From positions 186,001-250,000 of the forward strand of contig NZ_FOBW01000002.1 in NCBI RefSeq assembly GCF_900109925.1: DNA of 64,000 nt, written 5' to 3'. The notes below the pieces were generated by a model that worked only from the letters and a program-made list of their open reading frames with translations, ran no database searches and had not been told where the DNA came from. Made by a program: the position numbers and the translations under genes. The DNA comes from Mesobacillus persicus (lineage in GTDB: Bacteria > Bacillota > Bacilli > Bacillales > Cytobacillaceae). Within the stretch, counting starts at the first letter, position 1, and the number at the start of each line of letters is the position of its first letter. Below, piece by piece: positions 36,199 to 64,000 of the stretch.

Positions 36199-38516
36199 TG
36201 TTTAACTCCCTCAGCAAGGGCATGAACGAGAACTTCGTCTACATGCGAAACGAGTACAAACTCAAGTTGATTACGAACGCTTTCTGGAATATCATCAATA
36301 TCCTTTTCGTTATCTTTCGGTAGAATGATTTTCGTTAATCCAGCCCTATGAGCACTTAATGTTTTTTCTTTTAATCCACCAATTGGAAGTACACGGCCAC
36401 GTAGCGTGATTTCACCGGTCATACCGACTTCTCGGCGAATTGGTCTTCCAGACAGAGCAGACACGAGGGCCGTAGCAATCGTGATCCCTGCCGAAGGGCC
36501 ATCCTTTGGAGTTGCCCCTTCTGGTACGTGAATATGGATATCCAGTTTTTCATGGAAATCTTCATCGATTCCGAGTTCCTTCGTTTTTGAACGAACGTAG
36601 CTAAACGCCGCTTGCGCTGACTCTTTCATGACGTCGCCTAATTTCCCTGTTAAAACAAGTTTGCCTTTACCAGGAGATAGCGATACTTCAATTTGCAATG
36701 TATCCCCGCCAACCGTTGTGTAAGCAAGGCCGGTTGCAACCCCGATTTGATCTTCCATTTCCGCTTCACCATAACGGAATTTCGGTTTGCCGAGGAAATC
36801 AACAACGTTCTTTTCGTTAACGACAACGCGCTTTTTCGATTCAGATACAATAATTCTTGCGGTTTTACGGCAAATCGTCGCTAGCTGGCGTTCAAGAGAA
36901 CGCACCCCTGCTTCTCGTGTGTAGTGGCGAATAATTTCCAATAACGCCTCTTCACGTATTTGCAATTGTGCTTTTGATAAACCATGGTCCTCAATTTGCC
37001 TTTGGAGCAAGTGATCCTTGGCAATATGAACTTTTTCAAGCTCTGTATAGCCAGCAATTGTGATGATTTCCATCCGATCAAGTAACGGACCTGGGACAGT
37101 GCTTAGGTTATTCGCTGTCGCAATAAACATAACCTTCGATAAATCATATGTTTCTTCAATATAATGATCGCTAAAGTTATGGTTTTGTTCCGGGTCTAAA
37201 ACTTCGAGCATCGCGGAAGATGGATCACCACGGAAATCGCTAGACATTTTATCAATTTCATCTAAAAGAAAGACTGGGTTGACGGTTCCAGCTTTTTTCA
37301 TACCTTGAATAATACGTCCTGGCATCGCACCGACATATGTACGACGATGACCGCGGATTTCCGATTCATCACGAACGCCACCAAGAGAAATCCGAACAAA
37401 ATTCCTGTTTAAGGATTTGGCAATTGAACGTGCTAGACTCGTTTTCCCGACCCCTGGAGGTCCAGCTAGACAAAGAATCGGTCCTTTTAAGGAATTCGTT
37501 AGCTTTTGAACAGCAAGGTATTCCAAGACACGTTCTTTCACCTTTTCAAGACCGTAGTGGTCCTCATTTAAAATATTCTCAGCTTTTTTGATGTTCAAGT
37601 CATCATCGGTTGCTTTTGACCAAGGTAGCGCAACTAGCCAGTCGATATAATTCCGAATGACCGCACTTTCTGCAGAAGTAGACGGAACCTTTTCATACCG
37701 ATCAAGCTCTTTTAACGCCGTTTCCTTTATGTGGTCAGGCATTCCTGCTTTTTCGATTTTTTCCGTTAGCTCTGAAACTTCCCCAGTTTTCCCTTCTTTA
37801 TCACCAAGTTCTTTCTGGATAGCTTTCATTTGCTCACGAAGATAGTATTCCTTTTGCGTCCTTTCCATGGAGCGCTTCACTCGTTGGCCGATTTTCTTTT
37901 CGAGATTCAGTACTTCTTTTTCATTATGAATAATTTCAACCACGCGATTCATGCGTTCTTTTTCATCAATTGTTTCTAATATCTCTTGCTTTTCTTTCAG
38001 CTTTAATGGCAAATGGGAGGAAATAATATCAGCCATTCTTCCTGGTTCTTCGATATCAGTAACCGAAGAATGGGTTTCAGCTGAAATTTTCTTAGACATT
38101 TTTATGTACTGTTCAAAATACTCGAGCATCGTTCTCATTAATGCTTCGTCTTCTACATCCTTCGTGTCACGATCCTCGTATGTTTTTAAGGTTGCAGAAT
38201 AATGGCCTTCATCGTCATAGAAGTCAACAATTTCTGCCCGCTTTAGTCCTTCTACAAGCACACGAATCGTTCCATTTGGAAGCTTCAACATTTGCTTTAC
38301 CTTTGTGAGCGTACCCATTCGATAAAGCTCGTCTTCCGTCGGCTCGTCTATTGAGACGTCCTTTTGAGTAGTAAGAAAGATCATATGGTCATCGACCATT
38401 GCCTTTTCTAGCGCCTGGACTGACTTTTCACGGCCTACATCTAGATGAAGTACCATCGTTGGATAGACCAAAAGTCCCCGAAGCGGTAATAATGGGACGG
38501 TTTTATTTTCCCCCAT
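36195..38516 (-). CDS. lonA: ATP-dependent protease LonA
   Basis: A 773-residue AAA+ serine-lysine protease of the Lon family. It has an N-terminal substrate domain, Walker [10 protein letters not shown], Walker [10 protein letters not shown], and the protease domain with catalytic Ser in KDGPSAGIT and Lys in GLKEKTL. The ATG at 38516 follows GGAGGTG, and [19 protein letters not shown] matches other Lon starts. Degrades unfolded and regulatory proteins, including sporulation regulators in Bacillus. Followed by ysxC. Confidence 0.97.
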
Positions 38517-61721: not shown

Positions 61722-61817
61722 TCAAAGTTCTAGTTCTCCCATACGAAGGAGTTCTACAACTGCTTGTGAACGCCCCTTTACGCCTAGCTTTTGCATAGCG
61801 TTGGAAATGTGTTTAGG
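61722..61817 (-). pseudogene. gerE: 3' end of gerE, rest displaced by inserted element
   Basis: Minus strand codes for HISNAMQKLGVKGRSQAVVELLRMGELEL and a stop. That is the C-terminal LuxR-type helix-turn-helix tail of GerE, the late mother-cell sporulation regulator. Only these last roughly 30 codons are here, and upstream sequence turns into the recombinase gene instead of the expected TVRN of GerE. GerE belongs after ysmB in this gene order. The 5' part must lie beyond the right edge of the window if the gene is intact except for the insertion. Whether excision restores it is not shown here. Confidence 0.9.
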
Positions 61818-61831
61818 GAGTATAAAAAAGG

Positions 61832-63397
61832 CTACAATTTTCCAAGTGGAGTAAAGACATCAATGTTTCCATCTTTATCAATTTCCACTTTATGAAGAAG
61901 TTGTTGGAGAATCATTTGCAATTCTTTGACATCTTTATAATCAAGGTTTTGTAATTTTGTCAGTCCTGTTCTAATCTGTTCTTTGATTTCATTATCTGAT
62001 ACAATGGGTCGTTTTTTATCGACCTTAATGCCACGGAGTTTATCTTGAAGGTTTTCAATTTCTTTTTCATATTCATTCTTTTCGAACTGATATTGGTCTT
62101 CATCGATTTCTCCAAGTTTCCTATCTTTACGTAGTTCAAATAGAAGCTTTCGGTTTTCCTGAATCATTCTTTCGTATTTATCTTTGTCCTTCTCCTTCGT
62201 TTCTACATGATTATATGTAGGGATTTTTACACGTTCAGTGATTTCATCTACTTTAATTGCATCCTGAAGGAAAAGAGTGAGTTCGTTTAAAAGTTCATCA
62301 CGGAAAGATTCATACGGAATCCACAGCCCATTTTCGCACCCAACAGTTCCAATCCGTCTTCTTCTGGAACAAATCAAATACCGATATTCTTTTTTTCCTT
62401 TTTTACTTGTTTTCATCGAAACAAAGTTACTATCACAATGGGCACACTTTGCTATTCCAGCAAAGGCATTAACCGCTATCCCTCTTACACCTCCCCGTTT
62501 TCCACCTCCACGAAGAAGTCTCATCTCTTGAGCTTTTTGAAATGTTTCATCATCTATAATTGGTTCCCAATTTTGTTCTTCGTTTCTCAACCATTTTTCC
62601 TTTTCTTTTTGAACAAATTTATTACGTCTGTTTTGCATGTCATCCACATCATCGTAATGTTTTTCTACCGTATATTTATTGAAGACGTTCCTACCTGTAT
62701 AGGCTTCGTTTTGCAACATTCTTTGAACGGTTGTAATTCCCCAGAGCCCTCCTTTAGGACTTGGTATTCCTCTCTTGTTTAATTCTTCAATGATGGATTT
62801 CTCACCCATGTTCTGATAACAGTACCATTCAAATATTTGTTTCACGATAAGAGCATGGTCTTCCGATATCTCAAGTGTTTTTAAGTTACCTGTTTTTACT
62901 TTCTTATACCCAAAGGGTGCAAAACTTCCTGTAAAGTTTCCACTTCGAGCAGACTCACGAATTCCCCGTCTAGATGAAAGAGAAATTTGTTCGGAAAGTT
63001 TTTGGTTCACAGCAGAGATAATCGTAAAAATCATTTCATCATCTTTCTCTTGTGAATCATACGTATCATCAATGGAAATTAATCGAATCCCCAAAGCGTT
63101 TACTAATTTCCTTTTTAGAGTAACAGCATCCAGCGCATCACGGGAGAAACGGGAAAGAGAAGCAAATATTATCGTCTGGAAATATCCTTTTTTGGCATCT
63201 TCCAGTAACTCTTTAATTTCATCTCGAACAACAATACTTGTTCCTGATGATTTATCTTCATAAAAGAACTGTGGATCTAACTCTTCCATCCTTGCTTTTT
63301 CTAAACAAACCGCCTTTTGATGTTCGGGTGAATCTTTTTGTGATGCTTTTAATGTAGAAACCCGAACATAAATCGCAGCAATGTTTTCATTACTCAT
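61832..63397 (-). CDS. Large serine recombinase of integrated element
   Basis: A 521-residue large serine recombinase (same superfamily as SpoIVCA and phage integrases). The catalytic domain begins MSNENIAAIYVRVSTL with Arg12 and Ser14, and includes SLSRFSRDALDAVTLKRKL. It is followed by the recombinase DNA-binding domain (SARSGNFTGSFAPFGYKK ... NKRGIPSPKGGLWGITTVQRML), a zinc-ribbon-like cysteine set (CAHC ... C ... C) and a coiled coil. Start ATG 63397 with GGAGGTT upstream. Its stop is 15 bases from the gerE remnant, so it defines the element end. Confidence 0.95.
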   Translation of the reverse strand: MSNENIAAIYVRVSTLKASQKDSPEHQKAVCLEKARMEELDPQFFYEDKSSGTSIVVRDEIKELLEDAKKGYFQTIIFASLSRFSRDALDAVTLKRKLVNALGIRLISIDDTYDSQEKDDEMIFTIISAVNQKLSEQISLSSRRGIRESARSGNFTGSFAPFGYKKVKTGNLKTLEISEDHALIVKQIFEWYCYQNMGEKSIIEELNKRGIPSPKGGLWGITTVQRMLQNEAYTGRNVFNKYTVEKHYDDVDDMQNRRNKFVQKEKEKWLRNEEQNWEPIIDDETFQKAQEMRLLRGGGKRGGVRGIAVNAFAGIAKCAHCDSNFVSMKTSKKGKKEYRYLICSRRRRIGTVGCENGLWIPYESFRDELLNELTLFLQDAIKVDEITERVKIPTYNHVETKEKDKDKYERMIQENRKLLFELRKDRKLGEIDEDQYQFEKNEYEKEIENLQDKLRGIKVDKKRPIVSDNEIKEQIRTGLTKLQNLDYKDVKELQMILQQLLHKVEIDKDGNIDVFTPLGKL

Positions 63398-63419
63398 GTT
63401 AGATAACCTCCATCTAAAC

Positions 63420-63448
63420 AAAAAAACCTCTTAGTTCATCCTAAGAGG
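63420..63448 (-). terminator. Terminator after 51-aa ORF
   Basis: Minus strand: CCTCTTAG-GATGAA-CTAAGAGG followed by TTTTTTTG. It overlaps the end of the small gene and lies just before the recombinase gene. Confidence 0.88.
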
Positions 63449-63596
63449 TGTATTCTTTAAAACTATTATAATATTTTTTGTCATAGTCCGTTAAGACTTT
63501 TTTAATGGTGTTATCAACCAGTGCTTGAATTATTTCATCGGGTGTTTTATCGCTAGTGGATTTATGAAATCTAAAGTTGAACTTTTTTCCCTTCAT
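63441..63596 (-). CDS. Small unknown protein of the element (51 aa)
   Basis: ATG at 63596 with GGGGGAGA about 6 bases upstream, then MKGKKFNFRFHKSTSDKT... ending YYNSFKEYTS. Basic N-terminus, no motifs I recognise, too short for ordinary ORF calls. Strong ribosome site and a terminator after the stop support it as a real gene. Between recombinase and regulator, so possibly a recombination directionality factor or accessory protein, which is unproven. Confidence 0.7.
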   Translation of the reverse strand: MKGKKFNFRFHKSTSDKTPDEIIQALVDNTIKKVLTDYDKKYYNSFKEYTS

Positions 63597-63769
63597 AAAG
63601 TATCTCCCCCAATACCTTATCTATATGTGATGACCAGATTGTCCTATGTATCTATCAGTTAAAATCACTTACTAATCACTAATCATTTAGCAACTTGTAA
63701 GTAGTATACAATCGATGTATAATGAAACCAAATTTATTTTCAAATTTTTTTAGAAAAGGTGAATCTTTT

Positions 63770-64000
63770 ATGGAATTTGGGGCATTTTTAAAACGGAAAC
63801 GGCTGGAGATGAACATTTCAGCACGAGAAATGTGCAGGTTGATTGATGTAAGTAATGGATATATGTCACAAGTGGAAAATGGGAAGATTGAGACGCCTAG
63901 ACGTGAATTGTTGTTAAAAATCATGGATGTCTTACATATTGAACCTTCTGAATTAGAACCCTTTGGTTTTCAATTTCGAGAAAATGAAGATATCCAATCG
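63770..64000 (+). CDS. XRE-family regulator, N-terminal part (runs off window)
   Basis: ATG at 63770 with AAAAGGTGA upstream. The protein starts MEFGAFLKRKRLEMNISAREMCRLIDVSNGYMSQVENGK, a classic helix-turn-helix XRE domain (about 5-60), then IETPRRELLLKIMDVLHIEPSELEPFGF. Only 77 residues are visible. Divergent from the recombinase and the small gene; phage repressors often sit this way. Confidence 0.88.
   Translation, partial: MEFGAFLKRKRLEMNISAREMCRLIDVSNGYMSQVENGKIETPRRELLLKIMDVLHIEPSELEPFGFQFRENEDIQS

What the first reader, a model, noticed from the sequence alone, without database searches (positions are those of the whole stretch)
61722..64000. Recombinase-bearing element inserted into sporulation gene gerE
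The last about 30 GerE codons sit between ysmB and the stop of a large serine recombinase, while the expected upstream half of gerE is absent from the window. This is the layout of the skin element in sigK: a serine recombinase next to one end of an interrupted sporulation gene. It would provide developmentally controlled repair of gerE if excision happens in the mother cell.
Basis: partly seen in the sequence, partly recalled or inferred. Interest (0 to 1): 0.85.

Follow-up and report, generated by a model that had tools for sequence, protein, structure and literature searches.

The report
Prophage splitting spore gene gerE
A 39.5-kb virus-derived DNA element sits exactly inside a small gene that spores need and carries the enzyme that can cut it out and rejoin the gene; this trick is already known, but related elements turn out to use the same spot in many spore-forming bacteria.

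Summary
The window ends inside a 39,483-bp siphovirus-like prophage that splits gerE at the AA of codon 49. The 5' half lies 37.3 kb beyond the right edge on the same contig. Searches found no other gerE in the genome, and 6 of 6 congeners carry an intact copy. The host flanks rejoin to an exact gerE; the element's ends rejoin to an AA-centred inverted repeat (22 of 27 positions). The kind is known: gin in B. cereus gerE uses the same codons (2017), and phage Xeni_IDv2 entered P. larvae gerE in the laboratory (2025) at the base predicted here. New is the breadth: a gerE piece flanks 49 of 63 distinct recombinases of this clade and 11 of 15 of a second clade, in Bacillaceae and Paenibacillaceae; some elements are only 2.6-3.2 kb. 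All 63 of the first clade have a member of one small-protein family encoded upstream of the recombinase (60 within 500 bp), in the window a 51-aa ORF; I propose it as the directionality factor. Best mechanism: recombinase plus small protein excise the prophage in the mother cell, restoring gerE, while the spore keeps it. Excision and its timing are inferred, not shown.

The parts
61722..61802 (-). 3' piece of gerE, codons 49-74 plus stop (NAMQKLGVKGRSQAVVELLRMGELEL). The 5' piece, codons 1-48, is outside the window at C16:287286-287429 (-).
61801..61802 (-). Predicted crossover dinucleotide AA of codon Asn49; its partner is at C16:287284-287285, 39,483 bp away.
61803..61829 (-). 27-bp attP arm on the element side; matches the arm at the other end of the element in 22 of 27 positions.
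61832..63397 (-). Large serine recombinase, 521 aa (Resolvase, Recombinase and zinc ribbon domains); start ATG chosen by its ribosome-binding site.
63426..63449 (-). Terminator-like hairpin between the small ORF and the recombinase (2 such sites found in the scanned stretch, 1.6 expected from shuffles, so weak).
63441..63596 (-). 51-aa ORF, member of the small-protein family found upstream of clade-1 recombinases; candidate recombination directionality factor.
63619..63648 (-). Conserved promoter-like motif CATAGGACAA-N11-CATA upstream of the small ORF.
63770..64000 (+). Cro/CI-type HTH regulator, divergent from the recombinase module; the gene ends at C16:250225, beyond the window.
61803..64000 (.). 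The part of the prophage that lies in the window; it continues to C16:287283.

Best explanation
A temperate siphovirus-like phage was inserted by its own large serine recombinase at the AA of gerE codon 49 and splits the gene into two halves. Seen in the sequence: both junctions, exact rejoining of gerE on paper, a symmetric attP, an open recombinase frame, phage structural genes, and a conserved small gene just upstream of the recombinase. Inferred: that small protein is the directionality factor that turns the recombinase from integration to excision; both are made in the mother cell during sporulation, the prophage leaves as a circle, and gerE is rejoined and transcribed by sigma-K there, while the forespore chromosome keeps the prophage. 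The same reaction would serve phage induction in growing cells.
For: Junctions, empty site and attP symmetry. Phage genes. Same site in relatives: gerE piece in 49 of 63 clade-1 and 11 of 15 clade-2 recombinase loci. Reported integration of P. larvae phage Xeni_IDv2 into gerE at phage base 38,418, which is where the predicted 9-base core begins in the Xenia record. Small-protein family upstream of the recombinase: 60 of 63 by leave-one-out profile within 500 bp, 0 of 63 in each control, the other 3 further upstream. Minimal elements of 2.6-3.2 kb keep the recombinase, the small ORF and both gerE halves in frame. Host has an open sigK and spoIIID. Precedents: GirC and GirX on gin, seen; SprA and SprB on SPbeta, passages.
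Against: No excision was observed; everything on timing is inference. Complete sigma-E or sigma-K consensus sites are not significantly enriched upstream of the small ORF, and the motif there was found after looking and is absent from many loci. The small protein has no known function or solved relative, and its models are not informative. A recent insertion would leave gerE just as well conserved.
Confidence: 0.8

Rival explanations
1. An ordinary prophage that uses gerE as its attachment site. It excises only on phage induction, and lysogens sporulate without GerE.
For: The element looks like a complete phage with a regulator and lysis gene. The P. larvae lysogens were described simply as lysogens. 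Full mother-cell promoter consensus sites are not enriched.
Against: Minimal elements without phage genes keep recombinase, small ORF and both gerE halves. Recombinases of related elements are under purifying selection, dN/dS 0.04-0.11 in the 5 of 11 pairs where dS was not saturated. gin and SPbeta, which work alike, do excise in sporulation.
Confidence: 0.17
2. A dead insertion: the prophage can no longer leave and gerE is lost in this strain.
For: No excision data; the genome has no second gerE to compensate, which a strain under relaxed selection for sporulation could tolerate.
Against: The recombinase frame is open with its conserved residues, both att arms are intact and symmetric, the tape-measure gap is an intron and not damage, and gerE differs from congeners by 15-28 synonymous and only 1-3 nonsynonymous codons.
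Confidence: 0.02
3. Assembly artefact that joins phage DNA to gerE.
For: The genome is a draft of 40 contigs.
Against: Both junctions lie in one 498-kb contig, share the AA and give a symmetric attP, and the arrangement recurs in many other genomes.
Confidence: 0.01

Closest known systems
gin element of Bacillus cereus ATCC10987 (Abe et al. 2017, PMC5595907; parts 1-4 of 6 of the text read)
   Same: Splits gerE at the same codons 47-49, with the crossover predicted at AA and a 27-bp imperfect inverted repeat; serine recombinase plus a small directionality factor (GirX, 42 aa).
   Different: gin is 28.6 kb with no phage genes and three serine recombinases; here a phage-like element with one recombinase found.
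Paenibacillus larvae phage Xeni_IDv2 integrated in gerE (PMC12453123; passages and section 14)
   Same: Tailed temperate phage entering gerE. The Xenia record has a clade-1 recombinase 50% identical to the window's and an upstream small ORF of the same family; the junction base agrees with the prediction.
   Different: Laboratory lysogens; rejoining of gerE in sporulation was not among the passages seen. That paper and record share numbering is assumed.
Prophage in gerE of Bacillus glycinifermentans, mentioned in PMC5595907
   Same: A prophage in gerE; its integrase is said to be 52% identical to GirC.
   Different: Only mentioned there, rearrangement not verified; its sequence was not examined here.
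SPbeta prophage in spsM of B. subtilis (PMC4191935, passages)
   Same: Active phage in a mother-cell gene; serine recombinase SprA and small factor SprB excise it in sporulation.
   Different: Other target gene and other recombinase; the best solved relative of our clade is the SPbeta recombinase YokA, at remote similarity.
skin element in sigK (recalled; passages)
   Same: Serine recombinase beside one half of a split mother-cell gene.
   Different: Other gene; sigK is one open frame in this host.

Membership tests
Sporulation-gene intervening element (general kind) | Element splits a sporulation gene, and exact removal restores the frame | tested here: met
Sporulation-gene intervening element (general kind) | Carries its own site-specific recombinase | tested here: met
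Sporulation-gene intervening element (general kind) | Excised during sporulation in the mother cell | not testable with these tools
   Needs DNA from sporulating cells; the promoter evidence is mixed
gin element | Inserted in gerE at codons 47-49 | tested here: met
gin element | No phage genes | tested here: not met
gin element | Three serine recombinase genes | tested here: not met
   One place found by tblastn with two recombinase queries; very divergent ones could be missed
gin element | Recombinase and factor homologous to GirC and GirX | not tested
   No GirC or GirX sequence was obtained
Tailed-phage prophage (siphovirus-like) | Terminase, portal, capsid, tail and lysis genes in one block | tested here: met
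Tailed-phage prophage (siphovirus-like) | Makes infectious particles | not testable with these tools
   Needs induction of the strain
skin element | Interrupts sigK | tested here: not met
Recombination directionality factor (the 51-aa ORF) | Small protein encoded with the integrase and conserved with it | tested here: met
Recombination directionality factor (the 51-aa ORF) | Binds the integrase and drives attL x attR recombination | not testable with these tools
   Needs biochemistry or a reporter assay

The most novel reading that the evidence does not exclude
Codon 49 of gerE is the dedicated home of an old recombinase-plus-directionality-factor module that spans Bacillaceae and Paenibacillaceae. 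Temperate phages spread it; in some hosts the phage has been lost and only about 2.6 kb is left, a DNA-level counterpart of an intein made of recombinase, one small factor and a mother-cell promoter, which must be cut out each time a spore is made. The small-protein family described here would be the directionality factor of the whole clade.
Probability: 0.55. Interest if true: 0.75.

Novelty: new member of a known kind. Interest (0 to 1): 0.6.

Why it matters
It turns scattered reports of gerE insertions into a pattern: recombinases of two clades, from many genera, cut the same two bases of one 74-codon regulator gene. That offers many natural attB/attP pairs, a candidate directionality factor for every clade-1 recombinase found, and minimal elements in which the complete developmental switch can be tested. 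It also makes testable why mobile elements settle in mother-cell genes: the mother cell dies anyway, so excision there costs the element nothing.

Tried and rejected
A genome-contig scan with the single protein gave no relative; the scan with the alignment gave 46 loci. Scans with complete sigma-E and sigma-K consensus (recalled) gave 0 of 63 (shuffle mean 0.4) and 2 of 63 (mean 0.7, reached in 29 of 200 shuffles); CATANNNTA alone was in excess, 14 of 63 against 5.2. AC-N16/17-CATA gave 14 of 63 (mean 6.5, maximum 15 of 100 shuffles) and a SpoIIID-like box (recalled) 15 of 63 (mean 7.0, maximum 14). The motif was first noticed by eye, so its statistics are post hoc; outside the 17 rows that built the matrix, 8 of 46 loci pass a 1% null, several of them weakly. 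Models of the 51-aa ORF were not informative, so no fold search was run; no solved structure is a relative. PHROGs matched 1 of 20 small proteins, with a family that carries no function, and Pfam and NCBIfam 0 of 20. I first took the gap in the tape-measure gene for damage; it is a group I intron. Whether both recombinase clades share one origin of gerE targeting is open: two outgroup phages fall between them with weak support (81/48) and long branches. GirC and GirX were not obtained. No tool named the host species; its family also holds genomes whose recombinase equals that of Neobacillus niacini and Mesobacillus subterraneus records.

Full report
WHAT IS THERE. The window is C16:186001-250000 of a 4.64-Mb genome in 40 contigs. 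gerE was found only as two pieces on that contig: codons 1-48 at C16:287286-287429 (-) and codons 49-74 plus stop at window 61722-61802 (-). The six congeners held all have an intact 74-codon gene at 95-97% identity. From crossover to crossover the element measures 39,483 bp. The 5' junction reads CATATTTCT|AA|GGAAATATG and the 3' junction CACATTTCC|AA|CGCTATGC. Joined in a script, the host flanks give CATATTTCT|AA|CGCTATGC, the same letters as in congeners L020, L021 and L024, reading His-Ile-Ser-Asn-Ala-Met. The element's own ends give an inverted repeat around AA with 22 of 27 arm positions matching; over 39,421 centres inside the element the maximum is 20 and the mean 7.1, and attB has 8 of 27. 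Among nearby centres, AA is the best symmetry centre in this element and in 8 of 8 other elements whose two ends were held. The crossover is thus predicted at the AA of Asn49, where Abe et al. predicted it for gin.

THE ELEMENT IS A PROPHAGE. Of the 66 ORFs that my simple caller lists inside it, 20 were scanned against PHROGs (18 matched) and 10 proteins, partly the same, against Pfam (9 matched): integrase, endolysin, tail proteins, distal tail protein, tape measure, major tail protein, head-tail adaptor, capsid, maturation protease, portal, both terminase subunits, Erf, a C5 methyltransferase with an NgoFVII-type restriction enzyme, two sigma-factor-like proteins and a Cro/CI-type regulator. 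The capsid is 58-60% identical to the seven Geobacillus phages at the top of the list. The gap in the tape-measure gene is a full-length group I intron, 63.3 bits. An IMG/VR contig of 38,505 bp begins at the recombinase, and the 7,566 bp fetched from it are identical to this element; the rest was not compared.

THE RECOMBINASE BELONGS TO A gerE-BOUND FAMILY. In the window's family 8 of 193 genomes, this one included, have a relative at E <= 1e-50, and in 8 of 8 a gerE 3' piece follows. An alignment of ten gave 46 loci in named genomes, 20 in viral contigs and 18 of 397 genomes sampled from the order. Of the 46 named loci (labelled Bacillus, Neobacillus, Mesobacillus, Metabacillus, Peribacillus, Calidifontibacillus, Paenibacillus, Cohnella, Fontibacillus and Aneurinibacillus), 42 have a gerE piece in the fetched stretch; of the four without, L081 and L088 end within 50 bp of the recombinase, L095 ends 2.3 kb on, and L092 has 8 kb on both sides. 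After removal of near-copies 83 distinct recombinases remain: 63 in clade 1 with the window, 15 in a second clade about 30% identical to ours, and 5 other phage recombinases as outgroup. Four short sequences were dropped for the tree of 79 rows, in which both clades have support 100/100. A gerE piece is present in 49 of 63 and in 11 of 15. The 14 clade-1 misses are two free phages (L053, L054), seven stretches that end within 50 bp of the recombinase (L081, L088, L115, L117, L118, L119, L121), L095, and four with kilobases on both sides but no gerE (L092, L103, L110, L120). The four clade-2 misses are phage CBP1 (L144), a stretch that ends 55 bp on (L134), L136 and the viral contig L142. In 44 loci the gerE piece lies within 150 bp of the recombinase: the 3' piece in 38, the 5' piece, pointing the other way, in six (L062, L066, L076, L112, L129, L135). 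Whether the clades share one origin of gerE targeting is open. That these genomes lack a second, intact gerE was tested only for the window's genome.

INDEPENDENT EXPERIMENT. A 2025 study of phage resistance in P. larvae reports phage Xeni_IDv2 integrated in gerE in three isolates, with nine duplicated bases and the phage opened at base 38,418 (PMC12453123, passages, section 14). The Xenia record KT361652 has a clade-1 recombinase, and the 9-mer ATCTCCAAT, which contains the predicted AA, begins at base 38,418 of that record. That the paper and the record share one numbering is my assumption.

THE SMALL PROTEIN. Just upstream of the recombinase the window holds a 51-aa ORF. Minimal elements suggest its role: L063, L084 and L067 have 2,578, 2,872 and 3,164 bp between the gerE halves, and each has a 47-64-aa ORF right before the recombinase; besides these there is little, though L067 also has a 399-aa methyltransferase-like ORF (judged by eye). 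A profile of such ORFs, each time leaving out the tested locus and its kin of 60% identity or more, finds a member on the same strand within 500 bp upstream in 60 of 63 clade-1 loci at E <= 1e-3; the antisense strand, the downstream 530 bp and five shuffles each give 0 of 63, and clade 2 gives 0 of 15, one of which has no upstream DNA. The three misses (L048, L057, L100) have a member further upstream, behind what looks like a second or broken recombinase. I propose that it is the directionality factor, as GirX is for GirC and SprB for SprA (passages). No library gives it a function.

REGULATION. Upstream of the small ORF, in the window and in 14 of 63 loci in all, stands ACA-N12-CATA (shuffle mean 1.4, maximum 5 in 300), part of a longer mATRGKACAA-N11-CATA. 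CATA is typical of sigma-E and sigma-K -10 boxes, and TAGGACAATC fits the SpoIIID box WWRRACARNY (both recalled). Against this: complete sigma-E or sigma-K sites are not significantly enriched; the spacing differs from the AC-N17-CATAAGATA site upstream of this genome's own gerE (read by eye, located); many loci lack the motif, among them the group around phage Xenia, whose records have an ArpU-like gene upstream. Mother-cell expression is plausible, not shown. The host has sigK and spoIIID in open frames.

IS gerE STILL USED? Between this genome and its six congeners the joined halves differ in 15-28 codons synonymously and 1-3 nonsynonymously, none of the latter in the 3' half. In L063, L067 and L084 both gerE pieces are free of stops. 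Recombinases of related elements give dN/dS 0.04-0.11 in 5 of 11 pairs; in the other 6, the window's pair with L046 among them, dS was saturated. This fits elements that are kept because they can be removed, but a recent insertion in this strain would also leave gerE conserved.

PLACE IN WHAT IS KNOWN. gin (2017) established the rejoining of gerE in B. cereus by GirC and GirX and mentioned an unverified prophage in B. glycinifermentans gerE. Eight searches of the held open-access library listed no paper that by title or by the passages I read surveys gerE insertions or describes this small-protein family; subscription papers and supplements could not be searched, and most listed papers were seen as listings only. 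The window element is therefore a new member of a known kind. The breadth, the candidate directionality-factor family and the 2.6-kb elements are what I did not find in print.

Noticed in passing
L009:13169-13418 (-), that is C16:258169-258418: Group I intron (RF00028, 63.3 bits, full length) inside the prophage's tape-measure gene, with no room for a homing endonuclease ORF.
   Followed up: partly
L010:9326-11137 (-) and L010:11302-12258 (-): Two sigma-factor-like phage proteins; the longer (603 aa as called, open frame 666) appears to fuse two sigma factors in one chain, and 0 of 124 matching phage records cover 80% of it.
   Followed up: partly
L083:5758-11486: Two tandem copies of a small gerE element (2717 of 2800 bases identical) with an attP-like site between them.
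   Followed up: partly
L078 and L093, downstream of the recombinase: Two copies of the gerE 3' end 1.6 and 1.9 kb apart; stacked elements or a carried spare end. Unexplained.
   Followed up: no
L010:14425-16785, that is C16:279425-281785: C5 methyltransferase with a divergent NgoFVII-type restriction enzyme gene on the prophage; gin also carries a restriction-modification system.
   Followed up: partly
L010:17614-17776 (-), that is C16:282614-282776: EGFOA RNA family match (57.6 bits) in the prophage.
   Followed up: no
L131 and L133, upstream of the recombinase: Clade-2 recombinases have their own small ORFs of 45 and 41 aa that look alike by eye, close in size to GirX (42 aa).
   Followed up: no
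L011:1445-2134 (-): HNH-AP2 gene directly beside the 5' gerE half.
   Followed up: no
L011:9604-9782 (-): Lysine riboswitch in the host flank beyond the prophage (135.9 bits).
   Followed up: no
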